Origin: Morinoia aosen | Lineage: Eukaryota > Arthropoda > Malacostraca > Amphipoda > Talitridae | DNA length: 64,000 nucleotides | Reading direction: 5' to 3' | Assembly (NCBI GenBank): GCA_030386875.1 | Contig: CM059567.1 | Coordinates: forward strand, 80,531,130 to 80,595,129 | In this document: positions 14,977 to 61,575 of the stretch, one piece after another | Position numbering within the stretch: position 1 is the stretch's first letter | Layout: each line of letters starts with the position of its first letter | Translations under genes and position numbers: made by a program | The notes under the pieces: generated by a model | The model's database searches: none | Told to the model about the DNA's origin: nothing | Seen by the model: only the letters and a program-made list of their open reading frames with translations

Positions 14977-15095
14977 GCCAACGGCCATACCACGTTGAAT
15001 GCACCGCTTCTCGTCCGATCAGCGAAGTTAAGCAACGTTGGGTCTGGTTAGTACTTGGATGGGTGACCGCCTGGGAACACCAGATGCTGTTGGCT
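14977..15095 (+). rRNA. 5S ribosomal RNA, unit 13
   Basis: The gene matches the reference. The spacer has TCAATCAATGG, CATGCGCGTG and CAGCTCTGAG, and a private TTCCTAGCTTG. Confidence 0.97.
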
Positions 15096-28085: not shown

Positions 28086-28493
28086 AGGCACCGCCACACC
28101 TTGCATTATGTCAATGCTACTTGTAACTTTGTTCGTGTCGCAGAACAACCGCTGCGGCTTAACGAGCTTTTGGATGAGCGCGTGACAAAGCGCGGCAGTC
28201 AGTTGCATATAAGCTTTGAGAGGAGGAGGACGTCAGACGACAATGTGCTCTGCAAAGCAGCTGCGCTCGGACTTTCGCGGAACACGCTTGCGAGACAACA
28301 GTGAGCGCTTGAGCGAGACAACCGTACTCAATGACTGCTTGGCTAGCACTGGCTCTGCTGTGCGGTGTCGTCTGGCTACGTGAATCAGGAGGGCTGGACT
28401 TTTGTTCATGTGGCTGCCCGAGCGGTGAGAGAGCTCTGGGCAACTCGTCGGTGCGGCATGGAGTACTCGAAGTTGCAAGGTGTGGCGGTGCCT
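28086..28493. mobile_element. PIF/Harbinger-type MITE, copy 7
   Basis: Same element and insertion base as copy 1. It has the ATAATACTG flank although the preceding unit is not of the 3-bp deletion type, the only such combination in the window. Confidence 0.9.
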
Positions 28494-38404: not shown

Positions 38405-38523
38405 GCCAACGGCCATACCACGTTGAATGCACCGCTTCTCGTCCGATCAGCGAAGTTAAGCAACGTTGGGTCTGGTTAGTACTTGGATGGGTGACCGCCT
38501 GGGAACACCAGATGCTGTTGGCT
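38405..38523 (+). rRNA. 5S ribosomal RNA, unit 33
   Basis: The gene matches the reference. It is the counterpart of unit 1 at an offset of 37,732 bp, with the same spacer markers on both sides, including the 8-T tract upstream. Confidence 0.97.
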
Positions 38524-39492
38524 TTTTACCTTTTCCGTGTCTTCTTCGATGACAGGAATTTGGGTCAAATCTTCCGAGTGAATTCGATTTTTTCCGCGGG
38601 ATTGTCCCGTGAGGTCATTTTTTTCAACACTTTAAATTCCTTGCTTGCCTGCATTCGCGTACCCGCAGGTTGGAACCAAGCTCCTATTTTGATATTTGCG
38701 CAGTCCAAAGGTCACCATTCAATGGTCGCCTTTTCGTCGTCACGTTCTGGAAAATCTTAGGCATTTAGATAGAATGAGCCCAATGATGTTCATCGATTGA
38801 TCGCCCTTTCCGGAAGCACATCTGTCTAGTGAATGAATATTTTTGGCAATGATTGCGCAGGTTATCTCAGCTTGCGCCCTATGATGAGATCTTGGTGTTG
38901 GGCGCATCTTTTCCATGCGAGTGTACTCCGCTGAATACATTCGGTGCTGATATTTTTCGATGGACGATTCACGTCGAGCCTCGGAAATGAGCTCTTCGAC
39001 TGTTATGATGCGCATGCAAGAGTGACAGCTGTGAGCAGCTGCCTGCTGTTCAATGGTCTCAAGATTTTGGAAACTACAGCCCTCCGAAAGTGTAGTCATT
39101 TGCGGCTGTGAACGTTCTTTTTGTTTACGGGAGTAGCGTGAGGCTGGGAGATGAAGCTCAGTTGTAGGTAACAGTTTTCCGAGCAAATCGATCGTGATCG
39201 TGAATTTCGATGAATGCATCGCACACTGATTGAATGAATCATCGTGAGCTGGTGTGCAGGCTCCTGCTCAAAGTGAGCATTTGTTCCAATCCTGAGCTGT
39301 TTGACGACGTTCCCTGCAATTGAAAGGTGTGACTTTGTTTTTTTTTCGCGCAATTTAGGACGTGGACTACAATCGATAATACTGTTAGTTGAGCGTCGAG
39401 CATAGTGAAGCGGCGACATCATCGAGTATTGTTTTACTTGAAGATAAGTTGGTCAAATACGAATTCGTTCGTTCGACATGGCAATCTTCCTC

Positions 39493-39611
39493 GCCAACGG
39501 CCATACCACGTTGAATGCACCGCTTCTCGTCCGATCAGCGAAGTTAAGCAACGTTGGGTCTGGTTAGTACTTGGATGGGTGACCGCCTGGGAACACCAGA
39601 TGCTGTTGGCT
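39493..39611 (+). rRNA. 5S ribosomal RNA, unit 34
   Basis: The gene matches the reference. Counterpart of unit 2, with CCTGCTG instead of CCTGTTG in the spacer. Confidence 0.97.
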
Positions 39612-40476
39612 TTTTACCTTTTCCGTGTCTTCTTCGATGACAGGAATTTGGGTCAAATCTTCCGAGTGAATTCGATTTTTTCCGCGGGATTGTCCCGTGA
39701 GGTCATTTTTTTCAACACTTTAAATTCCTTGCTTGCCTGCATTCGCGTACCCGCAGGTTGGAACCAAGCTCCTATTTTGATATTTGCGCAGTCCAAAGGT
39801 CACCATTCAATGGTCGCCTTTTCGTCGTCACGTTCTGGAAAATCTTAGGCATTTAGATGGAATGAGCCCAATGATGTTCATCGATTGATCGCCCTTTCCG
39901 GAAGCACATCTGTCTAGTGAATGAATATTTTTGGCAATGATTGCGCAGGTTATCTCAGCTTGCGCCCTATGATGAGATCTTGGTGTTGGGCGCATCTTTT
40001 CCATGCGAGTGTACTCCGCTGAATACATTCGGTGCTGATATTTTTCGATGGACGATTCACGTCGAGCCTCGGAAATGAGCTCTTCGACTGTTATGATGCG
40101 CATGCAAGAGTGACAGCTGTGAGCAGCTGCCTGCTGTTCAATGGTCTCAAGATTTTGGAAACTACAGCCCTCCGAAAGTGTAGTCATTTGCGGCTGTGAA
40201 CGTTCTTTTTGTTTACGGGAGTAGCGTGAGGCTGGGAGATGAAGCTCAGTTGTAGGTAACAGTTTTCCGAGCAAATCGATCGTGATCGTGAATTTCGATG
40301 AATGCATCGCACACTGATTGAATGAATCATCGTGAGCTGGTGTGCAGGCTCCTGCTCAAAGTGAGCATTTGTTCCAATCCTGAGCTGTTTGACGACGTTC
40401 CCTGCAATTGAAAGGTGTGACTTTGTTTTTTTTTTCGCGCAATTTAGGACGTGGACTACAATCGATAATATTGTTA

Positions 40477-40884
40477 AGGCACCGCCACACCTTGCATTAT
40501 GTCAATGCTACTTGTAACTTTGTTCGTGTCGCAGAACAACCGCTGCGGCTTAACGAGCTTTTGGATGAGCGCGTGACAAAGCGCGGCAGTCAGTTGCATA
40601 TAAGCTTTGAGAGGAGGAGGACGTCAGACGACAATGTGCTCTGCAAAGCAGCTGCGCTCGGACTTTCGCGGAACACGCTTGCGAGACAACAGTGAGCGCT
40701 TGAGCGAGACAACCGTACTCAATGACTGCTTGGCTAGCACTGGCTCTGCTGTGCGGTGTCGTCTGGCTACGTGAATCAGGAGGGCTGGACTTTTGTTCAT
40801 GTGGCTGCCCGAGCGGTGAGAGAGCTCTGGGCAACTCGTCGGTGCGGCATGGAGTACTCGAAGTTGCAAGGTGTGGCGGTGCCT
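40477..40884. mobile_element. PIF/Harbinger-type MITE, copy 8
   Basis: Counterpart of copy 1 in the large duplication, with the same ATAATATTG flank. It lacks the private A of copy 1 (CCCGAGCGG here). Confidence 0.9.
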
Positions 40885-40992
40885 TTAGTTGAGCGTCGAG
40901 CATAGTGAAGCAGCGACATCATCGAGTATTGTTTTACTTGAAAATAAGTTGGTCAAATACGAATTCGTTCGTTCGACATGGCAATCTTCCTC

Positions 40993-41111
40993 GCCAACGG
41001 CCATACCACGTTGAATGCACCGCTTCTCGTCCGATCAGCGAAGTTAAGCAACGTTGGGTCTGGTTAGTACTTGGATGGGTGACCGCCTGGGAACACCAGA
41101 TGCTGTTGGCT
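40993..41111 (+). rRNA. 5S ribosomal RNA, unit 35 (downstream of MITE)
   Basis: The gene matches the reference. Counterpart of unit 3. The leader has a private GAAGCAGCG in place of GAAGCGGCG. Confidence 0.97.
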
Positions 41112-42080
41112 TTTTACCTTTTCCGTGTCTTCTTCGATGACAGGAATTTGGGTCAAATCTCCCGAGTGAATTCGATTTTTTCCGCGGGATTGTCCCGTGA
41201 GGTCATTTTTTTCAACACTTTAAATTCCTTGCTTGCCTGCATTCGCGTACCCGCAGGTTGGAACCAAGCTCCTATTTTGATATTTGCGCAGTCCAAAGGT
41301 CACCATTCAATGGTCGCCTTTTCGTCGTCACGTTCTGGAAAATCTTAGGCATTTAGATAGAATGAGCCCAATGATGTTCATCGATTGATCGCCCTTTCCG
41401 GAAGCACATCTGTCTAGTGAATGAATATTTTTGGCAATGATTGCGCAGGTTATCTCAGCTTGCGCCCTATGATGAGATCTTGGTGTTGGGCGCATCTTTT
41501 CCATGCGAGTGTACTCCGCTGAATACATTCGGTGCTGATATTTTTCGATGGACGATTCACGTCGAGCCTCGGAAATGAGCTCTTCGACTGTTATGATGCG
41601 CATGCAAGAGTGACAGCTGTGAGCAGCTGCCTGCTGTTCAATGGTCTCAAGATTTTGGAAACTACAGCCCTCCGAAAGTGTAGTCATTTGCGGCTGTGAA
41701 CGTTCTTTTTGTTTACGGGAGTAGCGTGAGGCTGGGAGATGAAGCTCAGTTGTAGGTAACAGTTTTCCGAGCAAATCGATCGTGATCGTGAATTTCGATG
41801 AATGCATCGCACACTGATTGAATGAATCATCGTGAGCTGGTGTGCAGGCTCCTGCTCAAAGTGAGCATTTGTTCCAATCCTGAGCTGTTTGACGACGTTC
41901 CCTGTAATTGAAAGGTGTGACTTTGTTTTTTTTTCGCGCAATTTAGGACGTGGACTACAATCGATAATACTGTTAGTTGAGCGTCGAGCATAGTGAAGCG
42001 GCGACATCATCGAGTATTGTTTTACTTGAAGATAAGTTGGTCAAATACGAATTCGTTCGTTCGACATGGCAATCTTCCTC

Positions 42081-42199
42081 GCCAACGGCCATACCACGTT
42101 GAATGCACCGCTTCTCGTCCGATCAGCGAAGTTAAGCAACGTTGGGTCTGGTTAGTACTTGGATGGGTGACCGCCTGGGAACACCAGATGCTGTTGGCT
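42081..42199 (+). rRNA. 5S ribosomal RNA, unit 36
   Basis: The gene matches the reference. Counterpart of unit 4, followed by a MITE. Confidence 0.97.
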
Positions 42200-43068
42200 T
42201 TTTACCTTTTCCGTGTCTTCTTCGATGACAGGAATTTGGGTCAAATCTTCCGAGTGAATTCGATTTTTTCCGCGGGATTGTCCCGTGAGGTCATTTTTTT
42301 CAACACTTTAAATTCCTTGCTTGCCTGCATTCGCGTACCCGCAGGTTGGAACCAAGCTCCTATTTTGATATTTGCGCAGTCCAAAGGTCACCATTCAATC
42401 AATGGTCGCCTTTTCGTCGTCACGTTCTGGAAAATCTTAGGCATTTAGATGGAATGAGCCCAATGATGTTCATCGATTGATCGCCCTTTCCGGAAGCACA
42501 TCTGTCTAGTGAATGAATATTTTTGGCAATGATTGCGCAGGTTATCTCAGCTTGCGCCCTATGATGAGATCTTGGTGTTGGGCGCATCTTTTCCATGCGA
42601 GTGTACTCCGCTGAATACATTCGGTGCTGATATTTTTCGATGGACGATTCACGTCGAGCCTCGGAAATGAGCTCTTCGACTGTTATGATGCGCATGCAAG
42701 AGTGACAGCTGTGAGCAGCTGCCTGCTGTTCAATGGTCTCAAGATTTTGGAAACTACAGCCCTCCGAAAGTGTAGTCATTTGCGGCTGTGAACGTTCTTT
42801 TTGTTTACGGGAGTAGCGTGAGGCTGGGAGATGAAGCTCAGTTGTAGGTAACAGTTTTCCGAGCAAATCGATCGTGATCGTGAATTTCGATGAATGCATC
42901 GCACACTGATTGAATGAATCATCGTGAGCTGGTGTGCAGGCTCCTGCTCAAAGTGAGCATTTGTTCCAATCCTGAGCTGTTTGACGACGTTCCCTGCAAT
43001 TGAAAGGTGTGACTTTGTTTTTTTTTTCGCGCAATTTAGGACGTGGACTACAATCGATAATATTGTTA

Positions 43069-43476
43069 AGGCACCGCCACACCTTGCATTATGTCAATGC
43101 TACTTGTAACTTTGTTCGTGTCGCAGAACAACCGCTGCGGCTTAACGAGCTTTTGGATGAGCGCGTGACAAAGCGCGGCAGTCAGTTGCATATAAGCTTT
43201 GAGAGGAGGAGGACGTCAGACGACAATGTGCTCTGCAAAGCAGCTGCGCTCGGACTTTCGCGGAACACGCTTGCGAGACAACAGTGAGCGCTTGAGCGAG
43301 ACAACCGTACTCAATGACTGCTTGGCTAGCACTGGCTCTGCTGTGCGGTGTCGTCTGGCTACGTGAATCAGGAGGGCTGGACTTTTGTTCATGTGGCTGC
43401 CCGAGCGGTGAGAGAGCTCTGGGCAACTCGTCGGTGCGGCATGGAATACTCGAAGTTGCAAGGTGTGGCGGTGCCT
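43069..43476. mobile_element. PIF/Harbinger-type MITE, copy 9
   Basis: Counterpart of copy 2, sharing its GGAATACT change (A at 43446) and ATAATATTG flank. Confidence 0.9.
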
Positions 43477-43584
43477 TTAGTTGAGCGTCGAGCATAGTGA
43501 AGCGGCGACATCATCGAGTATTGTTTTACTTGAAAATAAGTTGGTCAAATACGAATTCGTTCGTTCGACATGGCAATCTTCCTC

Positions 43585-43703
43585 GCCAACGGCCATACCA
43601 CGTTGAATGCACCGCTTCTCGTCCGATCAGCGAAGTTAAGCAACGTTGGGTCTGGTTAGTACTTGGATGGGTGACCGCCTGGGAACACCAGATGCTGTTG
43701 GCT
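43585..43703 (+). rRNA. 5S ribosomal RNA, unit 37 (downstream of MITE)
   Basis: The gene matches the reference. Counterpart of unit 5, sharing its CAGCTGTCTGCTG spacer change. Confidence 0.97.
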
Positions 43704-44672
43704 TTTTACCTTTTCCGTGTCTTCTTCGATGACAGGAATTTGGGTCAAATCTCCCGAGTGAATTCGATTTTTTCCGCGGGATTGTCCCGTGAGGTCATTT
43801 TTTTCAACACTTTAAATTCCTTGCTTGCCTGCATTCGCGTACCCGCAGGTTGGAACCAAGCTCCTATTTTGATATTTGCGCAGTCCAAAGGTCACCATTC
43901 AATGGTCGCCTTTTCGTCGTCACGTTCTGGAAAATCTTAGGCATTTAGATAGAATGAGCCCAATGATGTTCATCGATTGATCGCCCTTTCCGGAAGCACA
44001 TCTGTCTAGTGAATGAATATTTTTGGCAATGATTGCGCAGGTTATCTCAGCTTGCGCCCTATGATGAGATCTTGGTGTTGGGCGCATCTTTTCCATGCGA
44101 GTGTACTCCGCTGAATACATTCGGTGCTGATATTTTTCGATGGACGATTCACGTCGAGCCTCGGAAATGAGCTCTTCGACTGTTATGATGCGCATGCAAG
44201 AGTGACAGCTGTGAGCAGCTGTCTGCTGTTCAATGGTCTCAAGATTTTGGAAACTACAGCCCTCCGAAAGTGTAGTCATTTGCGGCTGTGAACGTTCTTT
44301 TTGTTTACGGGAGTAGCGTGAGGCTGGGAGATGAAGCTCAGTTGTAGGTAACAGTTTTCCGAGCAAATCGATCGTGATCGTGAATTTCGATGAATGCATC
44401 GCACACTGATTGAATGAATCATCGTGAGCTGGTGTGCAGGCTCCTGCTCAAAGTGAGCATTTGTTCCAATCCTGAGCTGTTTGACGACGTTCCCTGTAAT
44501 TGAAAGGTGTGACTTTGTTTTTTTTTCGCGCAATTTAGGACGTGGACTACAATCGATAATACTGTTAGTTGAGCGTCGAGCATAGTGAAGCGGCGACATC
44601 ATCGAGTATTGTTTTACTTGAAGATAAGTTGGTCAAATACGAATTCGTTCGTTCGACATGGCAATCTTCCTC

Positions 44673-44791
44673 GCCAACGGCCATACCACGTTGAATGCAC
44701 CGCTTCTCGTCCGATCAGCGAAGTTAAGCAACGTTGGGTCTGGTTAGTACTTGGATGGGTGACCGCCTGGGAACACCAGATGCTGTTGGCT
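44673..44791 (+). rRNA. 5S ribosomal RNA, unit 38
   Basis: The gene matches the reference. Counterpart of unit 6 (TCAATCAATGG, CAGCTCTGAG). Confidence 0.97.
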
Positions 44792-45764
44792 TTTTACCTT
44801 TTCCGTGTCTTCTTCGATGACAGGAATTTGGGTCAAATCTTCCGAGTGAATTCGATTTTTTCCGCGGGATTGTCCCGTGAGGTCATTTTTTTCAACACTT
44901 TAAATTCCTTGCTTGCCTGCATTCGCGTACCCGCAGGTTGGAACCAAGCTCCTATTTTGATATTTGCGCAGTCCAAAGGTCACCATTCAATCAATGGTCG
45001 CCTTTTCGTCGTCACGTTCTGGAAAATCTTAGGCATTTAGATGGAATGAGCCCAATGATGTTCATCGATTGATCGCCCTTTCCGGAAGCACATCTGTCTA
45101 GTGAATGAATATTTTTGGCAATGATTGCGCAGGTTATCTCAGCTTGCGCCCTATGATGAGATCTTGGTGTTGGGCGCATCTTTTCCATGCGAGTGTACTC
45201 CGCTGAATACATTCGGTGCTGATATTTTTCGATGGACGATTCACGTCGAGCCTCGGAAATGAGCTCTTCGACTGTTATGATGCGCATGCAAGAGTGACAG
45301 CTCTGAGCAGCTGCCTGCTGTTCAATGGTCTCAAGATTTTGGAAACTACAGCCCTCCGAAAGTGTAGTCATTTGCGGCTGTGAACGTTCTTTTTGTTTAC
45401 GGGAGTAGCGTGAGGCTGGGAGATGAAGCTCAGTTGTAGGTAACAGTTTTCCGAGCAAATCGATCGTGATCGTGAATTTCGATGAATGCATCGCACACTG
45501 ATTGAATGAATCATCGTGAGCTGGTGTGCAGGCTCCTGCTCAAAGTGAGCATTTGTTCCAATCCTGAGCTGTTTGACGACGTTCCCTGCAATTGAAAGGT
45601 GTGACTTTGTTTTTTTTTCGCGCAATTTAGGACGTGGACTACAATCGATAATACTGTTAGTTGAGCGTCGAGCATAGTGAAGCGGCGACATCATCGAGTA
45701 TTGTTTTACTTGAAGATAAGTTGGTCAAATACGAATTCGTTCGTTCGACATGGCAATCTTCCTC

Positions 45765-45883
45765 GCCAACGGCCATACCACGTTGAATGCACCGCTTCTC
45801 GTCCGATCAGCGAAGTTAAGCAACGTTGGGTCTGGTTAGTACTTAGATGGGTGACCGCCTGGGAACACCAGATGCTGTTGGCT
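45765..45883 (+). rRNA. 5S ribosomal RNA, unit 39 (G81A variant)
   Basis: C-box G81A at 45845. Counterpart of unit 7, sharing TTTGAAGACG in the spacer. Confidence 0.95.
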
Positions 45884-46852
45884 TTTTACCTTTTCCGTGT
45901 CTTCTTCGATGACAGGAATTTGGGTCAAATCTCCCGAGTGAATTCGATTTTTTCCGCGGGATTGTCCCGTGAGGTCATTTTTTTCAACACTTTAAATTCC
46001 TTGCTTGCCTGCATTCGCGTACCCGCAGGTTGGAACCAAGCTCCTATTTTGATATTTGCGCAGTCCAAAGGTCACCATTCAATGGTCGCCTTTTCGTCGT
46101 CACGTTCTGGAAAATCTTAGGCATTTAGATGGAATGAGCCCAATGATGTTCATCGATTGATCGCCCTTTCCGGAAGCACATCTGTCTAGTGAATGAATAT
46201 TTTTGGCAATGATTGCGCAGGTTATCTCAGCTTGCGCCCTATGATGAGATCTTGGTGTTGGGCGCATCTTTTCCATGCGAGTGTACTCCGCTGAATACAT
46301 TCGGTGCTGATATTTTTCGATGGACGATTCACGTCGAGCCTCGGAAATGAGCTCTTCGACTGTTATGATGCGCATGCAAGAGTGACAGCTGTGAGCAGCT
46401 GCCTGCTGTTCAATGGTCTCAAGATTTTGGAAACTACAGCCCTCCGAAAGTGTAGTCATTTGCGGCTGTGAACGTTCTTTTTGTTTACGGGAGTAGCGTG
46501 AGGCTGGGAGATGAAGCTCAGTTGTAGGTAACAGTTTTCCGAGCAAATCGATCGTGATCGTGAATTTCGATGAATGCATCGCACACTGATTGAATGAATC
46601 ATCGTGAGCTGGTGTGCAGGCTCCTGCTCAAAGTGAGCATTTGTTCCAATCCTGAGCTGTTTGAAGACGTTCCCTGCAATTGAAAGGTGTGACTTTGTTT
46701 TTTTTTCGCGCAATTTAGGACGTGGACTACAATCGATAATACTGTTAGTTGAGCGTCGAGCATAGTGAAGCGGCGACATCATCGAGTATTGTTTTACTTG
46801 AAGATAAGTTGGTCAAATACGAATTCGTTCGTTCGACATGGCAATCTTCCTC

Positions 46853-46971
46853 GCCAACGGCCATACCACGTTGAATGCACCGCTTCTCGTCCGATCAGCG
46901 AAGTTAAGCAACGTTGGGTCTGGTTAGTACTTGGATGGGTGACCGCCTGGGAACACCAGATGCTGTTGGCT
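46853..46971 (+). rRNA. 5S ribosomal RNA, unit 40
   Basis: The gene matches the reference. Counterpart of unit 8, with a private GGAAAGTCTTAGG in the spacer. The offset to the first block drops by 1 bp in the poly-T tract just upstream. Confidence 0.97.
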
Positions 46972-47944
46972 TTTTACCTTTTCCGTGTCTTCTTCGATGA
47001 CAGGAATTTGGGTCAAATCTTCCGAGTGAATTCGATTTTTTCCGCGGGATTGTCCCGTGAGGTCATTTTTTTCAACACTTTAAATTCCTTGCTTGCCTGC
47101 ATTCGCGTACCCGCAGGTTGGAACCAAGCTCCTATTTTGATATTTGCGCAGTCCAAAGGTCACCATTCAATCAATGGTCGCCTTTTCGTCGTCACGTTCT
47201 GGAAAGTCTTAGGCATTTAGATGGAATGAGCCCAATGATGTTCATCGATTGATCGCCCTTTCCGGAAGCACATCTGTCTAGTGAATGAATATTTTTGGCA
47301 ATGATTGCGCAGGTTATCTCAGCTTGCGCCCTATGATGAGATCTTGGTGTTGGGCGCATCTTTTCCATGCGAGTGTACTCCGCTGAATACATTCGGTGCT
47401 GATATTTTTCGATGGACGATTCACGTCGAGCCTCGGAAATGAGCTCTTCGACTGTTATGATGCGCATGCAAGAGTGACAGCTCTGAGCAGCTGCCTGCTG
47501 TTCAATGGTCTCAAGGTTTTGGAAACTACAGCCCTCCGAAAGTGTAGTCATTTGCGGCTGTGAACGTTCTTTTTGTTTACGGGAGTAGCGTGAGGCTGGG
47601 AGATGAAGCTCAGTTGTAGGTAACAGTTTTCCGAGCAAATCGATCGTGATCGTGAATTTCGATGAATGCATCGCACACTGATTGAATGAATCATCGTGAG
47701 CTGGTGTGCAGGCTCCTGCTCAAAGTGAGCATTTGTTCCAATCCTGAGCTGTTTGACGACGTTCCCTGCAATTGAAAGGTGTGACTTTGTTTTTTTTTCG
47801 CGCAATTTAGGACGTGGACTACAATCGATAATACTGTTAGTTGAGCGTCGAGCATAGTGAAGCGGCGACATCATCGAGTATTGTTTTACTTGAAGATAAG
47901 TTGGTCAAATACGAATTCGTTCGTTCGACATGGCAATCTTCCTC

Positions 47945-48063
47945 GCCAACGGCCATACCACGTTGAATGCACCGCTTCTCGTCCGATCAGCGAAGTTAAG
48001 CAACGTTGGGTCTGGTTAGTACTTGGATGGGTGACCGCCTGGGAACACCAGATGCTGTTGGCT
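47945..48063 (+). rRNA. 5S ribosomal RNA, unit 41
   Basis: The gene matches the reference. Counterpart of unit 9. The second T run after the gene is interrupted (CCTTATCCG), but the first T5 run is intact. Confidence 0.97.
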
Positions 48064-49032
48064 TTTTACCTTATCCGTGTCTTCTTCGATGACAGGAATT
48101 TGGGTCAAATCTTCCGAGTGAATTCGATTTTTTCCGCGGGATTGTCCCGTGAGGTCATTTTTTTCAACACTTTAAATTCCTTGCTTGCCTGCATTCGCGT
48201 ACCCGCAGGTTGGAACCAAGCTCCTATTTTGATATTTGCGCAGTCCAAAGGTCACCATTCAATGGTCGCCTTTTCGTCGTCACGTTCTGGAAAATCTTAG
48301 GCATTTAGATGGAATGAGCCCAATGATGTTCATCGATTGATCGCCCTTTCCGGAAGCACATCTGTCTAGTGAATGAATATTTTTGGCAATGATTGCGCAG
48401 GTTATCTCAGCTTGCGCCCTATGATGAGATCTTGGTGTTGGGCGCATCTTTTCCATGCGAGTGTACTCCGCTGAATACATTCGGTGCTGATATTTTTCGA
48501 TGGACGATTCACGTCGAGCCTCGGAAATGAGCTCTTCGACTGTTATGATGCGCATGCAAGAGTGACAGCTGTGAGCAGCTGCCTGTTGTTCAATGGTCTC
48601 AAGATTTTGGAAACTACAGCCCTCCGAAAGTGTAGTCATTTGCGGCTGTGAACGTTCTTTTTGTTTACGGGAGAAGCGTGAGGCTGGGAGATGAAGCTCA
48701 GTTGTAGGTAACAGTTTTCCGAGCAAATCGATCGTGATCGTGAATTTCGATGAATGCATCGCACACTGATTGAATGAATCATCGTGAGCTGGTGTGCAGG
48801 CTCCTGCTCAAAGTGAGCATTTGTTCCAATCCTGAGCTGTTTGACGACGTTCCCTGCAATTGGAAGGTGTGACTTGGTTTTTTTTTCGCGCAATTTAGGA
48901 CGTGGACTACAATCGATAATACTGTTAGTTGAGCGTCGAGCATAGTGAAGCGGCGACATCATCGAGTATTGTTTTACTTGAAGATAAGTTGGTCAAATAC
49001 GAATTCGTTCGTTCGACATGGCAATCTTCCTC

Positions 49033-49151
49033 GCCAACGGCCATACCACGTTGAATGCACCGCTTCTCGTCCGATCAGCGAAGTTAAGCAACGTTGGGTC
49101 TGGTTAGTACTTGGATGGGTGACCGCCTGGGAACACCAGATGCTGTTGGCT
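49033..49151 (+). rRNA. 5S ribosomal RNA, unit 42
   Basis: The gene matches the reference. Counterpart of unit 10, with AAGTGATCATTTG and a long poly-T tract. Confidence 0.97.
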
Positions 49152-50119
49152 TTTTACCTTTTCCGTGTCTTCTTCGATGACAGGAATTTGGGTCAAATCT
49201 TCCGAGTGAATTCGATTTTTTCCGCGGGATTGTCCCGTGAGGTCATTTTTTTCAACACTTTAAATTCCTTGCTTGCCTGCATTCGCGTACCCGCAGGTTG
49301 GAACCAAGCTCCTATTTTGATATTTGCGCAGTCCAAAGGTCACCATTCAATGGTCGCCTTTTCGTCGTCACGTTCTGGAAAATCTTAGGCATTTAGATGG
49401 AATGAGCCCAATGATGTTCATCGATTGATCGCCCTTTCCGGAAGCACATCTGTCTAGTGAATGAATATTTTTGGCAATGATTGCGCAGGTTATCTCAGCT
49501 TGCGCCCTATGATGAGATCTTGGTGTTGGGCGCATCTTTTCCATGCGAGTGTACTCCGCTGAATACATTCGGTGCTGATATTTTTCGATGGACGATTCAC
49601 GTCGAGCCTCGGAAATGAGCTCTTCGACTGTTATGATGCGCATGCAAGAGTGACAGCTGTGAGCAGCTGCCTGCTGTTCAATGGTCTCAAGATTTTGGAA
49701 ACTACAGCCCTCCGAAAGTGTAGTCATTTGCGGCTGTGAACGTTCTTTTTGTTTACGGGAGTAGCGTGAGGCTGGGAGATGAAGCTCAGTTGTAGGTAAC
49801 AGTTTTCCGAGCAAATCGATCGTGATCGTGAATTTCGATGAATGCATCGCACACTGATTGAATGAATCATCGTGAGCTGGTGTGCAGGCTCCTGCTCAAA
49901 GTGATCATTTGTTCCAATCCTGAGCTGTTTGACGACGTTCCCTGCAATTGAAAGGTGTGACTTTGTTTTTTTTTTTCGCGCAATTTAGGACGTGGACTAC
50001 AATCGATAATACTGTTAGTTGAGCGTCGAGCATAGTGAAGCGGCGACATCGAGTATTGTTTTACTTGAAGATAAGTTGGTCAAATACGAATTCGTTCGTT
50101 CGACATGGCAATCTTCCTC

Positions 50120-50238
50120 GCCAACGGCCATACCACGTTGAATGCACCGCTTCTCGTCCGATCAGCGAAGTTAAGCAACGTTGGGTCTGGTTAGTACTTG
50201 GATGGGTGACCGCCTGGGAACACCAGATGCTGTTGGCT
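50120..50238 (+). rRNA. 5S ribosomal RNA, unit 43 (3-bp leader deletion type)
   Basis: The gene matches the reference. Counterpart of unit 11, sharing CCATACGAG and TCTTTAGC in the spacer. Confidence 0.97.
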
Positions 50239-51103
50239 TTTTACCTTTTCCGTGTCTTCTTCGATGACAGGAATTTAGGTCAAATCTTCCGAGTGAATTC
50301 GATTTTTTCCGCGGGATTGTCCCGTGAGGTCATTTTTTTCAACACTTTAAATTCCTTGCTTGCCTGCATTCGCGTACCCGCAGGTTGGAACCAAGCTCCT
50401 ATTTTGATATTTGCACAGTCCAAAGGTCACCATTCAATGGTCGCCTTTTCTTCGTCACGTTCTGGAAAATCTTAAGCATCTAGATGGAATGAACCCGATG
50501 ATGTTCATCGGTTGATCGCCCTTTCCGGAAGCACATCTGTCTAGTGAATGAATATCTTTAGCAATGATTGCGCAGGTTATCTCAGCTTGCGCCCTATGAT
50601 GAGATCTTGGTGTTGGGCGCATCTTTTCCATACGAGTGTACTCCGCTGAATACATTCGGTGCTGATATTTTTCGATGGACGATTCACGTCGAGCCTCGGA
50701 AATGAGCTCTTCGACTGTTATGATGCGCATGCAAGAGTGACAGCTGTGAGCAGCTGCCTGCTGTTCAATGGTCTCAAGATTTTGGAAACTACAGCCCTCC
50801 GAAAGTGTAGTCATTTGCGGCTGTGAACGTTCTTTTTGTTTACGGGAGAAGCGTGAGGCTGGGAGATGAAGCTCAGTTGTAGGTAACAGTTTTCCGAGCA
50901 AATCGATCGTGATCGTGAATTTCGATGAATGCATCGCACACTGATTGAATGAATCATCGTGAGCTGGTGTGCAGGCTCCTGCTCAAAGTGAGCATTTGTT
51001 CCAATCCTGAGCTGTTTGACGACGTTCCCTGCAATTGAAAGGTGTGACTTTGTTTTTTTTTTCGCGCAATTTAGGACGTGGACTACAATCGATAATACTG
51101 TTA

Positions 51104-51511
51104 AGGCACCGCCACACCTTGCATTATGTCAATGCTACTTGTAACTTTGTTCGTGTCGCAGAACAACCGCTGCGGCTTAACGAGCTTTTGGATGAGCGCG
51201 TGACAAAGCGCGGCAGTCAGTTGCATATAAGCTTTGAGAGGAGGAGGACGTCAGACGACAATGTGCTCTGCAAAGCAGCTGCGCTCGGACTTTCGCGGAA
51301 CACGCTTGCGAGACAACAGTGAGCGCTTGAGCGAGACAACCGTACTCAATGACTGCTTGGCTAGCACTGGCTCTGCTGTGCGGTGTCGTCTGGCTACGTG
51401 AATCAGGAGGGCTGGACTTTTGTTCATGTGGCTGCCCGAGCGGTGAGAGAGCTCTGGGCAACTCGTCGGTGCGGCATGGAGTACTCGAAGTTGCAAGGTG
51501 TGGCGGTGCCT
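51104..51511. mobile_element. PIF/Harbinger-type MITE, copy 10
   Basis: Counterpart of copy 3, with the ATAATACTG flank and TTA duplications at 51101-51103 and 51512-51514. Confidence 0.9.
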
Positions 51512-51619
51512 TTAGTTGAGCGTCGAGCATAGTGAAGCGGCGACATCATCGAGTATTGTTTTACTTGAAAATAAGTTGGTCAAATACGAATTCGTTCGTT
51601 CGACATGGCAATCTTCCTC

Positions 51620-51738
51620 GCCAACGGCCATACCACGTTGAATGCACCGCTTCTCGTCCGATCAGCGAAGTTAAGCAACGTTGGGTCTGGTTAGTACTTG
51701 GATGGGTGACCGCCTGGGAACACCAGATGCTGTTGGCT
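51620..51738 (+). rRNA. 5S ribosomal RNA, unit 44 (downstream of MITE)
   Basis: The gene matches the reference, with the MITE-linked marker set. Counterpart of unit 12. Confidence 0.97.
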
Positions 51739-52707
51739 TTTTACCTTTTCCGTGTCTTCTTCGATGACAGGAATTTGGGTCAAATCTCCCGAGTGAATTC
51801 GATTTTTTCCGCGGGATTGTCCCGTGAGGTCATTTTTTTCAACACTTTAAATTCCTTGCTTGCCTGCATTCGCGTACCCGCAGGTTGGAACCAAGCTCCT
51901 ATTTTGATATTTGCGCAGTCCAAAGGTCACCATTCAATGGTCGCCTTTTCGTCGTCACGTTCTGGAAAATCTTAGGCATTTAGATAGAATGAGCCCAATG
52001 ATGTTCATCGATTGATCGCCCTTTCCGGAAGCACATCTGTCTAGTGAATGAATATTTTTGGCAATGATTGCGCAGGTTATCTCAGCTTGCGCCCTATGAT
52101 GAGATCTTGGTGTTGGGCGCATCTTTTCCATGCGAGTGTACTCCGCTGAATACATTCGGTGCTGATATTTTTCGATGGACGATTCACGTCGAGCCTCGGA
52201 AATGAGCTCTTCGACTGTTATGATGCGCATGCAAGAGTGACAGCTGTGAGCAGCTGCCTGCTGTTCAATGGTCTCAAGATTTTGGAAACTACAGCCCTCC
52301 GAAAGTGTAGTCATTTGCGGCTGTGAACGTTCTTTTTGTTTACGGGAGTAGCGTGAGGCTGGGAGATGAAGCTCAGTTGTAGGTAACAGTTTTCCGAGCA
52401 AATCGATCGTGATCGTGAATTTCGATGAATGCATCGCACACTGATTGAATGAATCATCGTGAGCTGGTGTGCAGGCTCCTGCTCAAAGTGAGCATTTGTT
52501 CCAATCCTGAGCTGTTTGACGACGTTCCCTGCAATTGAAAGGTGTGACTTTGTTTTTTTTTCGCGCAATTTAGGACGTGGACTACAATCGATAATACTGT
52601 TAGTTGAGCGTCGAGCATAGTGAAGCGGCGACATCATCGAGTATTGTTTTACTTGAAGATAAGTTGGTCAAATACGAATTCGTTCGTTCGACATGGCAAT
52701 CTTCCTC

Positions 52708-52826
52708 GCCAACGGCCATACCACGTTGAATGCACCGCTTCTCGTCCGATCAGCGAAGTTAAGCAACGTTGGGTCTGGTTAGTACTTGGATGGGTGACCG
52801 CCTGGGAACACCAGATGCTGTTGGCT
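52708..52826 (+). rRNA. 5S ribosomal RNA, unit 45
   Basis: The gene matches the reference. Counterpart of unit 13, sharing CATGCGCGTG but having CAGCTGTGAG and no CTAGCTTG, so the two have diverged or been partly converted. Confidence 0.97.
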
Positions 52827-53799
52827 TTTTACCTTTTCCGTGTCTTCTTCGATGACAGGAATTTGGGTCAAATCTTCCGAGTGAATTCGATTTTTTCCGC
52901 GGGATTGTCCCGTGAGGTCATTTTTTTCAACACTTTAAATTCCTTGCTTGCCTGCATTCGCGTACCCGCAGGTTGGAACCAAGCTCCTATTTTGATATTT
53001 GCGCAGTCCAAAGGTCACCATTCAATCAATGGTCGCCTTTTCGTCGTCACGTTCTGGAAAATCTTAGGCATTTAGATGGAATGAGCCCAATGATGTTCAT
53101 CGATTGATCGCCCTTTCCGGAAGCACATCTGTCTAGTGAATGAATATTTTTGGCAATGATTGCGCAGGTTATCTCAGCTTGCGCCCTATGATGAGATCTT
53201 GGTGTTGGGCGCATCTTTTCCATGCGCGTGTACTCCGCTGAATACATTCGGTGCTGATATTTTTCGATGGACGATTCACGTCGAGCCTCGGAAATGAGCT
53301 CTTCGACTGTTATGATGCGCATGCAAGAGTGACAGCTGTGAGCAGCTGCCTGCTGTTCAATGGTCTCAAGATTTTGGAAACTACAGCCCTCCGAAAGTGT
53401 AGTCATTTGCGGCTGTGAACGTTCTTTTTGTTTACGGGAGTAGCGTGAGGCTGGGAGATGAAGCTCAGTTGTAGGTAACAGTTTTCCGAGCAAATCGATC
53501 GTGATCGTGAATTTCGATGAATGCATCGCACACTGATTGAATGAATCATCGTGAGCTGGTGTGCAGGCTCCTGCTCAAAGTGAGCATTTGTTCCAATCCT
53601 GAGCTGTTTGACGACGTTCCCTGCAATTGAAAGGTGTGACTTTGTTTTTTTTTCGCGCAATTTAGGACGTGGACTACAATCGATAATACTGTTAGTTGAG
53701 CGTCGAGCATAGTGAAGCGGCGACATCATCGAGTATTGTTTTACTTGAAGATAAGTTGGTCAAATACGAATTCGTTCGTTCGACATGGCAATCTTCCTC

Positions 53800-53918
53800 G
53801 CCAACGGCCATACCACGTTGAATGCACCGCTTCTCGTCCGATCAGCGAAGTTAAGCAACGTTGGGTCTGGTTAGTACTTGGATGGGTGACCGCCTGGGAA
53901 CACCAGATGCTGTTGGCT
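53800..53918 (+). rRNA. 5S ribosomal RNA, unit 46
   Basis: The gene matches the reference. Counterpart of unit 14, sharing the whole diverged spacer set. Confidence 0.97.
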
Positions 53919-54888
53919 TTTTACCTTTTCCGTGTCTTCTTCGATGACAGGAATTTGGGTCAAATCTTCCGAGTGAATTCGATTTTTTCCGCGGGATTGT
54001 CCGGTGAGGTCATTTTTTTCAACACTTTAGATTCCTTGCTTGCCTGCATTCGCGTACCCGCAGGTTGGAACCAAGCTCCTATTTTGATATTTGCACAGTC
54101 CAAAGGTCACCATTCAATGGTCGCCTTTTCTTCGTCACGTTCTGGAAAATCTTAAGCATCTAGATGGAATGAACCCGATGATGTTCATCGGTTGATCGCC
54201 CTTTCCGGAAGCACATCTGTCTAGTGAATGAATATCTTTAGCAATGATTGCGCAGGTTATCTCAGCTTGCGCCCTATGATGAGATCTTGGTGTTGGGCGC
54301 ATCGTTTCCTTGCGAGTGTTCTCCGCTGAATACATTCGGTGCTGATATTTTTCGATGGACGATTCACGTCGAGCCTCGGAAATGAGCTCTTCGACTGTTA
54401 TGATGCGCATGCAAGAGTGACAGCTGTGAGCAGCTGCCTGCTGTTCAATGGTCTCAAGATTTTGGAAACTACAGCCCTCCGAAAGTGTAGTCATTTGCGG
54501 CTGTGAACGTTCTTTTTGTTTACGGGAGAAGCGTGAGGCTGGGAGATGAAGCTCAGTTGTAGGTAACAGTTTTCCGAGCAAATCGATCGTGATCGTGAAT
54601 TTCGATGAATGCATCGCACACTGATTGAATGAATCATCGTGAGCTGGTGTGCAGGCTCCTGCTCAAAGTGAGCATTTGTTCCAATCCTGAGCTGTTTGAC
54701 GACGTTCCCTGCAATTGAAAGGTGTGACTTTGTTTTTTTTTTCGCGCAATTTAGGACGTGGACTACAATCGATAATACTGTTAGTTGAGCGTCGAGCATA
54801 GTGAAGCGGCGACATCATCGAGTATTGTTTTACTTGAAAATAAGTTGGTCAAATACGAATTCGTTCGTTCGACATGGCAATCTTCCTC

Positions 54889-55007
54889 GCCAACGGCCAT
54901 ACCACGTTGAATGCACCGCTTCTCGTCCGATCAGCGAAGTTAAGCAACGTTGGGTCTGGTTAGTACTTGGATGGGTGACCGCCTGGGAACACCAGATGCT
55001 GTTGGCT
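54889..55007 (+). rRNA. 5S ribosomal RNA, unit 47 (unit 15/17 hybrid, no MITE)
   Basis: The gene matches the reference. Its front (empty MITE site, preceded by a unit 14 type spacer) matches unit 15. Its back (GACAGGAATTTG, TTAGATAG) matches unit 17, as do the units that follow. The join therefore lies in or near this unit. Confidence 0.97.
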
Positions 55008-55976
55008 TTTTACCTTTTCCGTGTCTTCTTCGATGACAGGAATTTGGGTCAAATCTCCCGAGTGAATTCGATTTTTTCCGCGGGATTGTCCCGTGAGGTC
55101 ATTTTTTTCAACACTTTAAATTCCTTGCTTGCCTGCATTCGCGTACCCGCAGGTTGGAACCAAGCTCCTATTTTGATATTTGCGCAGTCCAAAGGTCACC
55201 ATTCAATGGTCGCCTTTTCGTCGTCACGTTCTGGAAAATCTTAGGCATTTAGATAGAATGAGCCCAATGATGTTCATCGATTGATCGCCCTTTCCGGAAG
55301 CACATCTGTCTAGTGAATGAATATTTTTGGCAATGATTGCGCAGGTTATCTCAGCTTGCGCCCTATGATGAGATCTTGGTGTTGGGCGCATCTTTTCCAT
55401 GCGAGTGTACTCCGCTGAATACATTCGGTGCTGATATTTTTCGATGGACGATTCACGTCGAGCCTCGGAAATGAGCTCTTCGACTGTTATGATGCGCATG
55501 CAAGAGTGACAGCTGTGAGCAGCTGCCTGCTGTTCAATGGTCTCAAGATTTTGGAAACTACAGCCCTCCGAAAGTGTAGTCATTTGCGGCTGTGAACGTT
55601 CTTTTTGTTTACGGGAGTAGCGTGAGGCTGGGAGATGAAGCTCAGTTGTAGGTAACAGTTTTCCGAGCAAATCGATCGTGATCGTGAATTTCGATGAATG
55701 CATCGCACACTGATTGAATGAATCATCGTGAGCTGGTGTGCAGGCTCCTGCTCAAAGTGAGCATTTGTTCCAATCCTGAGCTGTTTGACGACGTTCCCTG
55801 CAATTGAAAGGTGTGACTTTGTTTTTTTTTCGCGCAATTTAGGACGTGGACTACAATCGATAATACTGTTAGTTGAGCGTCGAGCATAGTGAAGCGGCGA
55901 CATCATCGAGTATTGTTTTACTTGAAGATAAGTTGGTCAAATACGAATTCGTTCGTTCGACATGGCAATCTTCCTC

Positions 55977-56095
55977 GCCAACGGCCATACCACGTTGAAT
56001 GCACCGCTTCTCGTCCGATCAGCGAAGTTAAGCAACGTTGGGTCTGGTTAGTACTTGGATGGGTGACCGCCTGGGAACACCAGATGCTGTTGGCT
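55977..56095 (+). rRNA. 5S ribosomal RNA, unit 48
   Basis: The gene matches the reference. Counterpart of unit 18 at the second offset (35,145 bp). Confidence 0.97.
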
Positions 56096-57067
56096 TTTTA
56101 CCTTTTCCGTGTCTTCTTCGATGACAGGAATTTGGGTCAAATCTTCCGAGTGAATTCGATTTTTTCCGCGGGATTGTCCCGTGAGGTCATTTTTTTCAAC
56201 ACTTTAAATTCCTTGCTTGCCTGCATTCGCGTACCCGCAGGTTGGAACCAAGCTCCTATTTTGATATTTGCGCAGTCCAAAGGTCACCATTCAATCAATG
56301 GTCGCCTTTTCGTCGTCACGTTCTGGAAAATCTTAGGCATTTAGATGGAATGAGCCCAATGATGTTCATCGATTGATCGCCCTTTCCGGAAGCACATCTG
56401 TCTAGTGAATGAATATTTTTGGCAATGATTGCGCAGGTTATCTCAGCTTGCGCCCTATGATGAGATCTTGGTGTTGGGCGCATCTTTTCCATGCGAGTGT
56501 ACTCCGCTGAATACATTCGGTGCTGATATTTTTCGATGGACGATTCACGTCGAGCCTCGGAAATGAGCTCTTCGACTGTTATGATGCGCATGCAAGAGTG
56601 ACAGCTGTGAGCAGCTGCCTGCTGTTCAATGGTCTCAAGATTTTGGAAACTACAGCCCTCCGAAAGTGTAGTCATTTGCGGCTGTGAACGTTCTTTTTGT
56701 TTACGGGAGTAGCGTGAGGCTGGGAGATGAAGCTCAGTTGTAGGTAACAGTTTTCCGAGCAAATCGATCGTGATCGTGAATTTCGATGAATGCATCGCAC
56801 ACTGATTGAATGAATCATCGTGAGCTGGTGTGCAGGCTCCTGCTCAAAGTGAGCATTTGTTCCAATCCTGAGCTGTTTGACGACGTTCCCTGCAATTGAA
56901 AGGTGTGACTTTGTTTTTTTTTTTCGCGCAATTTAGGACGTGGACTACAATCGATAATACTGTTAGTTGAGCGTCGAGCATAGTGAAGCGGCGACATCGA
57001 GTATTGTTTTACTTGAAGATAAGTTGGTCAAATACGAATTCGTTCGTTCGACATGGCGATCTTCCTC

Positions 57068-58051: not shown

Positions 58052-58459
58052 AGGCACCGCCACACCTTGCATTATGTCAATGCTACTTGTAACTTTGTTC
58101 GTGTCGCAGAACAACCGCTGCGGCTTAACGAGCTTTTGGATGAGCGCGTGACAAAGCGCGGCAGTCAGTTGCATATAAGCTTTGAGAGGAGGAGGACGTC
58201 AGACGACAATGTGCTCTGCAAAGCAGCTGCGCTCGGACTTTCGCGGAACACGCTTGCGAGACAACAGTGAGCGCTTGAGCGAGACAACCGTACTCAATGA
58301 CTGCTTGGCTAGCACTGGCTCTGCTGTGCGGTGTCGTCTGGCTACGTGAATCAGGAGGGCTGGACTTTTGTTCATGTGGCTGCCCGAGCGGTGAGAGAGC
58401 TCTGGGCAACTCGTCGGTGCGGCATGGAGTACTCGAAGTTGCAAGGTGTGGCGGTGCCT
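58052..58459. mobile_element. PIF/Harbinger-type MITE, copy 11
   Basis: Counterpart of copy 5, with the ATAATACTG flank. It is the last MITE in the window. Confidence 0.9.
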
Positions 58460-58686: not shown

Positions 58687-59726
58687 TTTTACCTTTTCCG
58701 TGTCTTCTTCGATGACAGGAATTTGGGTCAAATCTCCCGAGTGAATTCGATTTTTTCCGCGGGATTGTCCCGTGAGGTCATTTTTTTCAACACTTTAAAT
58801 TCCTTGCTTGCCTGCATTCGCGTACCCGCAGGTTGGAACCAAGCTCCTATTTTGATATTTGCGCAGTCCAAAGGTCACCATTCAATGGTCGCCTTTTCGT
58901 CGTCACGTTCTGGAAAATCTTAGGCATTTAGATAGAATGAGCCCAATGATGTTCATCGATTGATCGCCCTTTCCGGAAGCACATCTGTCTAGTGAATGAA
59001 TATTTTTGGCAATGATTGCGCAGGTTATCTCAGCTTGCGCCCTATGATGAGATCTTGGTGTTGGGCGCATCTTTTCCATGCGAGTGTACTCCGCTGAATA
59101 CATTCGGTGCTGATATTTTTCGATGGACGATTCACGTCGAGCCTCGGAAATGAGCTCTTCGACTGTTATGATGCGCATGCAAGAGTGACAGCTGTGAGCA
59201 GCTGCCTGCTGTTCAATGGTCTCAAGATTTTGGAAACTACAGCCCTCCGAAAGTGTAGTCATTTGCGGCTGTGAACGTTCTTTTTGTTTACGGGAGTAGC
59301 GTGAGGCTGGGAGATGAAGCTCAGTTGTAGGTAACAGTTTTCCGAGCAAATCGATCGTGATCGTGAATTTCGATGAATGCATCGCACACTGATTGAATGA
59401 ATCATCGTGAGCTGGTGTGCAGGCTCCTGCTCAAAGTGAGCATTTGTTCCAATCCTGAGCTGTTTGACGACGTTCCCTGCAATTGAAAGGTGTGACTTTG
59501 TTTTTTTTTCGCGCAATTTAGGACGTGGACTACAATCGATAATACTGTTAGTTGAGCGTCGAGCATAGTGAAGCGGCGACATCATCGAGTATTGTTTTAC
59601 TTGAAGATAAGTTGGTCAAATACGAATTCGTTCGTTCGACATGGCAATCTTCCTCGCCAACGGCCATACCACGTTGAATGCACCGCTTCTCGTCCGATCA
59701 GCGAAGTTAACCCGCGCACTGTAACT

Positions 59727-59922
59727 GGTCGCCTCATTTACCAGGCTCACTGGTTGCCAGACGTAAGGCATAACCCCAAGTTGTTATACACCAAAATGAT
59801 CGTCTCAGCGAGTGCTACACAGCTGGAGCCAGAAACCCCCACATTGTGGGGGTTAAGGCAGAGCTCCAACCACTTGGAAGTTGGGAGGGGTAAGCACAGT
59901 CAGTGTGGTAAATGAGGCGACC
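59727..59922. repeat. Inner inverted repeat of the piggyBac-type element
   Basis: GGTCGCCTCATTTACC at 59727-59742 is exactly complementary to GGTAAATGAGGCGACC at 59907-59922. The two 16-bp arms enclose 164 bp. Both lie in the left quarter of the element, so this is not the usual symmetrical sub-terminal repeat. It could be a transposase-binding repeat or the relic of an older nested insertion. Confidence 0.8.
59834..59854. repeat. G/C-rich hairpin inside the piggyBac-type element
   Basis: AACCCCCAC and GTGGGGGTT form a perfect 9-bp stem around an ATT loop. It lies within the inner inverted repeat, so the left quarter of the element could fold into a nested stem. Confidence 0.75.
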
Positions 59923-59999
59923 GTGAAAGGGTGTGCGTGCGAACAGTCAGTGGCAGCCTCAGTTACCAGCGAAACTACTCAGGGCCTTATTTCGCCTTA

Positions 60000-60480
60000 T
60001 TTCGTAAAAATGGCAAATAAGACAAATCTGAAGTCAGTAGCGTGTAGAACAGTATTTTATTCATATTGTGTGAAAATTACAAGTTTCGAAACACTATACT
60101 TACAGTAATATAACCAGACATGCAAACATGCATTTATGTAGGAACTAAAACGAAGAATGGATAACACCTAGTAGACATAAATGGTCATAACTTTTTTTCT
60201 AATTGTTGTAGAGGAAAAATAAAAACATCAGTAGGTTTGGAAGGATTTTCTGCATAAAATAGCAGTGAAAAACATTACATTGTTCCCAAAACACAAAAAT
60301 GGCCATTGATCTCTTTGAAGCAATGTTGTGCAAAAATCTACGGAGTTTGACTCCATATTACAAAGAAACGGTTCAAGTTATCAAAAATCTGACAACATCA
60401 AAGTGTAAAGCAACATTTTTTACTCATTACTTCATATTTTTACATCTCTGCCTATTACGGTAAGTGAACAGGGAACGGCA
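60000..60480. other. AT-rich interior of the piggyBac-type element
   Basis: This stretch is clearly richer in A and T than the array and has many short A and T runs. It has no long open frame and no RNA gene that I can recognise, and it is probably non-coding filler of the transposon. Confidence 0.6.
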
Positions 60481-60602
60481 GAGTAACGCGGGTAAATTGA
60501 CTACTTTTCTGAGGGATGCGCGACCGTGCGCGGGTTAAGCAACGTTGGGTCTGGTTAGTACTTGGATGGGTGACCGCCTGGGAACACCAGATGCTGTTGG
60601 CT

Positions 60603-61575
60603 TTTTACCTTTTCCGTGTCTTCTTCGATGACAGGAATTTGGGTCAAATCTTCCGAGTGAATTCGATTTTTTCCGCGGGATTGTCCCGTGAGGTCATTTT
60701 TTTCAACACTTTAAATTCCTTGCTTGCCTGCATTCGCGTACCCGCAGGTTGGAACCAAGCTCCTATTTTGATATTTGCGCAGTCCAAAGGTCACCATTCA
60801 ATCAATGGTCGCCTTTTCGTCGTCACGTTCTGGAAAATCTTAGGCATTTAGATGGAATGAGCCCAATGATGTTCATCGATTGATCGCCCTTTCCGGAAGC
60901 ACATCTGTCTAGTGAATGAATATTTTTGGCAATGATTGCGCAGGTTATCTCAGCTTGCGCCCTATGATGAGATCTTGGTGTTGGGCGCATCTTTTCCATG
61001 CGAGTGTACTCCGCAAAATACATTCGGTGCTGATATTTTTCGATGGACGATTCACGTCGAGCCTCGGAAATGAGCTCTTCGACTGTTATGATGCGCATGC
61101 AAGAGTGACAGCTCTGAGCAGCTGCCTGCTGTTCAATGGTCTCAAGATTTTGGAAACTACAGCCCTCCGAAAGTGTAGTCATTTGCGGCTGTGAACGTTC
61201 TTTTTGTTTACGGGAGTAGCGTGAGGCTGGGAGATGAAGCTCAGTTGTAGGTAACAGTTTTCCGAGCAAATCGATCGTGATCGTGAATTTCGATGAATGC
61301 ATCGCACACTGATTGAATGAATCATCGTGAGCTGGTGTGCAGGCTCCTGCTCAAAGTGAGCATTTGTTCCAATCCTGAGCTGTTTGACGACGTTCCCTGC
61401 AATTGAAAGGTGTGACTTTGTTTTTTTTTCGCGCAATTTAGGACGTGGACTACAATCGATAATACTGTTAGTTGAGCGTCGAGCATAGTGAAGCGGCGAC
61501 ATCATCGAGTATTGTTTTACTTGAAGATAAGTTGGTCAAATACGAATTCGTTCGTTCGACATGGCAATCTTCCTC
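60603..61575. other. Spacer after the split unit
   Basis: Standard spacer with TCAATCAATGG, TTAGATGG and CAGCTCTGAG, closest to the spacer after unit 13. It has a private CCGCAAAATAC in place of CCGCTGAATAC. It does not match the spacer after unit 21, so correspondence with the first block ends in unit 51. Confidence 0.8.

What the first reader, a model, noticed from the sequence alone, without database searches (positions are those of the whole stretch)
59656..60602. piggyBac-type element inserted exactly in the A box of a 5S gene
The insertion duplicates TTAA at nt 52-55 of the gene. This TTAA lies in the conserved AGTTAAGCAACG core of the Pol III control region, so every 5S gene of this type offers a piggyBac target within its promoter. 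Only one of 54 copies is hit, which suggests a recent event or removal by homogenisation. Target and ends are seen directly; loss of function is inferred from known 5S promoter structure.
Basis: partly seen in the sequence, partly recalled or inferred. Interest (0 to 1): 0.75.

Follow-up and report, generated by a model that had tools for sequence, protein, structure and literature searches.

The report
Small transposon inside one 5S gene
One 5S ribosomal RNA gene in a long tandem array is split by an 824-base, probably piggyBac-like, non-autonomous DNA transposon at a TTAA site; the insertion breaks the gene product but leaves almost the whole internal promoter standing beside the element.

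Summary
An 824-bp sequence (59711-60534) splits one 5S gene after nt 55, duplicates TTAA (nt 52-55) and has 12-bp inverted ends (11 of 12 match). The other 53 genes show the empty site. No transposase was recognised, so it looks non-autonomous. TTAA and CCC...GGG ends fit piggyBac and fail the published end rule of Kolobok; the CC[C/T]T rule quoted for piggyBac is not fully met (CCCG), so the superfamily is likely, not proven.

Hitting the A box needs no targeting: 54 of the array's 134 TTAA sites lie in 5S genes, about 40%. And the promoter boxes survive: the duplicated TTAA rebuilds A box 14/15, intermediate element 6/6 and C box 18/18 on the right side. Lost are nt 1-51 and the upstream flank; a transposon-5S chimeric RNA is possible but untested. 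Two inner end-like motifs suggest a composite of two short elements. The closest published case found is Pokey/mPok in Daphnia 28S genes. No genome was held, so other copies and a parent could not be sought.

The parts
59656..59710 (+). 5' part of the interrupted 5S rRNA gene, nt 1-55
   Evidence: identical to the majority gene
59707..59710 (+). left TTAA target site copy (nt 52-55)
   Evidence: only TTAA in the gene
59711..60534 (.). 824-bp non-autonomous DNA transposon with piggyBac-like ends
   Evidence: single copy in the window
59711..59722 (+). left terminal inverted repeat CCCGCGCACTGT
   Evidence: 11 of 12 against the right end
60523..60534 (-). right terminal inverted repeat (reads CCCGCGCACGGT on the - strand)
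59711..59931 (.). GC-rich left module, 221 bp, begins CCC and ends GGG; arms 59727-59752 / 59897-59922 pair (17-bp perfect core)
   Evidence: z -5.06 for 59711-59970, folded as DNA; 0 of 100 shuffles reach the ungapped inverted match; but in the Against line
59917..59931 (-). inner right-end-like motif CCCTTTCACGGTCGC, 12 of 15 against the outer right end
   Evidence: 1 of 500 shuffles reach it
59936..59969 (+). inner left-end-like motif, 25 of 34 against the outer left end, 4 bp (TGTG) after the left module
   Evidence: 24 of 31 in its core; 0 of 100 shuffles reach it
60535..60538 (+). right TTAA target site copy
60535..60602 (+). 3' part of the interrupted 5S gene, nt 52-119
   Evidence: identical to the majority gene
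60533..60547 (+). rebuilt A box (nt 50-64), 14 of 15; one base, from the transposon, differs
   Evidence: box limits from PMC3342222
60550..60555 (+). intermediate element (nt 67-72), 6 of 6
   Evidence: limits
60563..60580 (+). C box (nt 80-97), 18 of 18
   Evidence: limits
60505..60508 (+). TTTT inside the right end of the element, a possible weak Pol III stop between the expected new start (60484) and the 5S part
   Evidence: role inferred
60602..60606 (+). T5 run at the end of the 5S part, the presumed Pol III stop
   Evidence: role inferred

Best explanation
A non-autonomous DNA transposon, most likely of the piggyBac superfamily, was moved by a transposase supplied in trans and pasted into the single TTAA of one 5S gene (shown: precise ends, TTAA duplication, 53 empty sites; inferred: the enzyme and its family). 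Because about 40% of the TTAA sites in this array are the one in the 5S A box, ordinary TTAA choice is enough to explain the position. The unit no longer encodes a whole 5S rRNA. The duplicated TTAA leaves a nearly complete internal promoter on the right side, so TFIIIA could still bind there; whether Pol III starts about 51 bp inside the element is unknown and, given the lost upstream flank and a TTTT on the way, perhaps weak (inferred). The inner end-like motifs suggest that the element is a fused pair of a 221-bp and a 599-bp relative that now moves by its outer ends (inferred).
For: boundaries, TSD, 53 intact genes; ends 11 of 12, inner end-like motifs, promoter boxes, alignment ending at the junction; 54 of 134 TTAA sites in genes: 53 intact plus the target; 80 elsewhere; longest stretch between stops inside the insert 83 codons; no Pfam match above cut-off in the 10 longest of 21 stretches; Kolobok ends are 5'-RR and YY-3', unlike piggyBac; piggyBac: TTAA, 12-19 bp TIRs, CC[C/T]T; mPok: 750-760 bp piggyBac MITEs with 12 or 16 bp imperfect TIRs in 28S genes.
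Against: The fourth terminal base is G, so the quoted CC[C/T]T motif is not fully met. The perfect TIR is only 9 bp. No second copy and no parent transposase is known, since no genome was held. Composite reading: the 4 bp between the halves are TGTG, not TTAA; the inner left motif has lost two of its first three bases (CGT against CCC); and the gapped inverted-repeat score (46) was exceeded by 1 of 50 simple shuffles (48).
Confidence: 0.8

Rival explanations
1. The element belongs to another TTAA-duplicating superfamily (Kolobok or Sola3) rather than piggyBac.
For: Kolobok too makes TTAA duplications; a TTAA duplication for Sola3 is recalled, not read. The fourth base is not the T of the piggyBac rule.
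Against: Kolobok ends are 5'-RR...YY-3', AG in the ten Xenopus full-length elements of a table; here the ends are CCC...GGG. Sola3 ends could not be checked: the single paper found gave no end sequence in the passages read.
Confidence: 0.12
2. The element family specifically seeks the 5S A box, as Pokey seeks one site in 28S genes and Dada-5S seeks 5S genes.
For: The insertion is in the 5S gene and not in a spacer TTAA; precedents exist.
Against: One insertion only; 54 of 134 TTAA sites of the array are in the genes, so chance gives about 40%. Dada makes 6-7 bp duplications, here 4 bp.
Confidence: 0.07
3. Assembly artefact: the insert was joined into the array by mis-assembly.
For: The window is a near-identical tandem array with a 19.2-kb block repeated at 99.84%, a hard region for assemblers; no reads could be checked.
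Against: Exact TTAA duplication, matched ends and kept array register on both sides are what an insertion gives and a mis-join would hardly give.
Confidence: 0.03

Closest known systems
Pokey and its MITEs mPok1/mPok2 (piggyBac superfamily) in Daphnia 28S rRNA genes
   Same: TTAA insertion inside a multicopy rRNA gene; non-autonomous form of similar length (about 750-760 bp against 824); short imperfect TIRs (12 or 16 bp against 12)
   Different: Target is 28S, not 5S. Pokey is found at just one site of the 28S gene and prefers C one base and T four bases before TTAA; here both of these places are G (read). Sequence relationship not tested.
CMITEs of Acropora corals (piggyBac-type MITEs)
   Same: TTAA duplication, left ends beginning CCC, tandem arrays and a composite form made by MITE insertion
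   Different: About 100 bp long with a conserved internal region; left ends begin CCCTTT or CCCCTC rather than CCCGCG
Dada-5S DNA transposons of ray-finned fish
   Same: DNA transposons found inside 5S rRNA genes
   Different: 6-7 bp target duplications, different superfamily
Mutsu non-LTR retrotransposon of zebrafish 5S genes
   Same: Mobile element in 5S genes (named in a passage of PMC3706591)
   Different: A retrotransposon, which has no such TIRs (recalled)

Membership tests
piggyBac superfamily | TTAA target site, duplicated | tested here: met
piggyBac superfamily | TIRs of 12-19 bp | tested here: inconclusive
   11 of 12 bp, 9 perfect; rule; Pokey has 12 or 16 bp imperfect TIRs
piggyBac superfamily | terminal motif CC[C/T]T | tested here: not met
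   CCCG at both ends; the CCC part is met. Published ends vary: a large part of bee elements begin CAC and one of the coral elements begins CCCATT. The element is therefore called piggyBac-like.
piggyBac superfamily | DDD transposase, own or of an autonomous relative with the same ends | not testable with these tools
   none recognised in the element (10 of 21 stretches); no genome held for a relative
Kolobok superfamily | ends 5'-RR ... YY-3' with TTAA duplication | tested here: not met
   ends are CC...GG; rule
Sola3 | end motif | not tested
   no end motif seen in the passages found
Dada | 6-7 bp target duplication in a small RNA gene | tested here: not met
   4 bp duplication; rule
MITE (short non-autonomous element with TIRs) | short, no transposase, TIRs | tested here: met
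   824 bp, no domain in the fragments scanned, 12-bp TIRs
MITE (short non-autonomous element with TIRs) | many copies in the genome | not testable with these tools
   1 copy in the window; no genome held

The most novel reading that the evidence does not exclude
Because the TTAA lies at the very start of the A box, a TTAA transposon landing there rebuilds the 5S internal promoter on its right side. The hit copy may thus be a live Pol III unit that starts inside the transposon and makes a transposon-5S chimeric RNA, and a family that returned to this site would gain a ready promoter beside its right end in every 5S gene.
Probability: 0.17. Interest if true: 0.6.

Novelty: new member of a known kind. 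Interest (0 to 1): 0.38.

Why it matters
DNA transposons are said to be rarely met in rDNA (start of the abstract of PMC3315735 in the listing); cases seen here are Pokey in 28S and Dada-5S in fish. A TTAA element in 5S would add a case with, probably, piggyBac-type machinery. It also warns that annotation by covariance model counts the chimera as a 5S gene.

Tried and rejected
Search of the window's own genome with the insert: answered with an error because no whole genome is held; copies, flanks and an autonomous parent could therefore not be sought. Exact patterns, one from the element and one from the 5S gene in viral contigs and one from the 5S gene in genome contigs: 0 matches each; these collections are viral and prokaryotic and the scans exact, so this says little. 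The organism was not identified; a 22-base piece of the gene was found in no paper of the library. Tandem Repeats Finder gave no rows, its longest period being 500. ARAGORN, run with the bacterial code, found no tRNA genes. At E up to 5 no Rfam family matched inside the insert apart from two 5S rows, each of which runs over a junction; the CRISPR-DR6 rows at E 3.7 in the spacer were taken as chance. One Pfam row (TilS_C, E 0.14, below cut-off) was taken as chance. Rejected: Kolobok and Dada, by ends and by duplication length.

Literature on novelty: (piggyBac with '5S rRNA gene' or '5S rDNA' and other terms) listed two papers each; by title and start of abstract none reports a piggyBac element in a 5S gene; none of the four was opened, and the library holds open-licence papers only. 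Passages were read of PMC2872659, PMC3849761, PMC10140906, PMC3706591, PMC8869645, PMC9587614, PMC6004289, PMC4912750, PMC5199201, PMC3342222 and PMC3123226; none was read whole. PMC3315735 was seen in a listing only.

Full report
The thing itself. The window is a tandem array of 5S rRNA genes: cmscan gives 54 matches, of which 53 are whole genes and one is the right junction of the reported insertion. 49 of the 53 whole genes are identical; 3 share one change and 1 has another. Gene-to-gene distances are 1086-1092 or 1499-1504 bp, apart from the one across the insertion. In the reported gene, nt 1-55 lie at 59656-59710 and nt 52-119 at 60535-60602, with 824 bp between and TTAA (nt 52-55) on both sides.

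Ends and content. The ends are CCCGCGCACTGT and, read from the other side, CCCGCGCACGGT: 11 of 12, 9 perfect. Inside the insert the longest stretch between stops is 83 codons; longer frames listed (115 and 111 aa) run out into the array. The 10 longest of the 21 stop-to-stop stretches of 25 residues or more were scanned against Pfam: nothing above cut-off, one chance-level row. A blastn of the insert against the window found only itself and its own internal inverted repeats.

Which superfamily. A passage of PMC2872659 gives for piggyBac TTAA duplications, TIRs of generally 12-19 bp and a CC[C/T]T terminal motif. Here TTAA and CCC are met; the fourth base is G. Published ends do vary: a large part of the bee elements begin CAC (PMC10140906 passage). 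Kolobok also duplicates TTAA but ends in 5'-RR and YY-3' (PMC9587614 passage), which is not met here. Sola3 could not be checked. I therefore call the element piggyBac-like and hold the superfamily likely, not shown.

Inner structure. The left 221 bp (59711-59931) begin with CCC, end with GGG and carry inverted arms with a 17-bp perfect core; as single-stranded DNA 59711-59970 folds better than all 200 shuffles (z -5.06). The inner motif at 59917-59931 matches the outer right end at 12 of 15 places (1 of 500 shuffles reach this), and 59936-59969 matches the outer left end at 25 of 34 (for its 31-base core 24 of 31; 0 of 100 shuffles). Exactly 4 bp, TGTG, lie between the two. This is what a head-to-tail pair of two related elements would leave if the middle TTAA and the inner ends had decayed while the outer ends were kept for movement. 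Against it: the middle is not TTAA, the inner left end lacks two of three terminal bases, and in an earlier gapped test the inverted-repeat score (46) was exceeded by 1 of 50 simple shuffles (48). Repeated binding sites inside one element are the plain alternative; a passage on Pokey says that its end regions contain repeats found in other piggyBac elements. Tandem and composite forms of piggyBac-type MITEs have been described in corals.

Why the A box. The window holds 136 TTAA; leaving out the one inside the element and counting the duplicated target once gives 134, of which 54 are in 5S genes (53 intact plus the target) and 80 elsewhere. A transposon that needs TTAA only would thus hit a 5S A box in about 40% of insertions into this array. 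One insertion cannot show targeting. The Rfam consensus of 5S has guUAAGc at this place, so the site is likely common; species were not surveyed.

What it does to the gene. The box limits A 50-64, IE 67-72, C 80-97 come from a figure legend of PMC3342222 on vertebrate genes; that they hold in this organism is assumed. In the register of the right half, with nt 1 at 60484, A box is kept at 14 of 15, IE at 6 of 6, C box at 18 of 18; the left half keeps 9 of 15, 1 of 6 and 6 of 18. The promoter boxes are thus rebuilt, not lost. Lost are nt 1-51 of the RNA and the normal upstream flank, to which the element's end shows no likeness by eye; C at -1 of the normal genes is G here, and the same paper cites reports that C at -1 matters for correct and efficient transcription. 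A TTTT at 60505-60508 lies between the expected start and the 5S part. A chimeric RNA is possible; I put live transcription at about one in six.

Age. Both gene halves are unchanged (0 of 123 nt), but the two nearest whole units differ from the hit unit at only 2 sites, so little decay would be expected even without constraint. In the unit alignment 53 of 54 units were used: the last, incomplete one was dropped, and the hit unit entered with its flanks joined. The largest repeated block ends at 56965, short of the insertion, so it does not date it. A 408-bp element in the spacer, with TTA duplications, sits in 11 of 54 spacer sites (11 filled, 43 empty), each time at the same place: homogenisation has spread a spacer insertion but not, within this window, the gene insertion. 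That contrast fits selection or youth and cannot tell them apart.

Verdict. A real, clean insertion of a known kind. The added points are the 40% chance figure, the surviving promoter boxes and the possible composite make-up. Within the open-licence library, the searches listed no paper whose title or abstract start reports a piggyBac element in a 5S gene.

Noticed in passing
2745-3152, 5337-5744, 13373-13780, 19228-19635, 22906-23313, 25493-25900, 28086-28493, 40477-40884, 43069-43476, 51104-51511, 58052-58459: A second mobile element: 408 bp, 20-bp perfect TIRs (AGGCACCGCC...) in 11 of 11 copies, flanked by TTA duplications, in the same spacer position; 43 empty sites have the single TTA. 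The duplication fits PIF/Harbinger (recalled). Same place and near-identity suggest spread by homogenisation rather than repeated insertion.
   Followed up: partly
1-19227 and 37733-56965: A 19.2-kb block of the array is repeated at 99.84% identity, with mostly the same order of unit variants: block duplication, or an assembly effect.
   Followed up: partly
60496-60602: Rfam scores the transposon-5S junction as a 5S gene just above the cut-off (38.6 against 38), so automatic counts would include a broken copy.
   Followed up: yes
59711-60534: CpG observed/expected is 0.77 in the element (0.53 in its first 230 bp) against 1.13 for the whole window, which may mean that the element spent time in methylated DNA before it landed here.
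   Followed up: no
8033, 29690, 45765 (gene starts): Three genes share a G to A change at nt 81, the second base of the C box.
   Followed up: no
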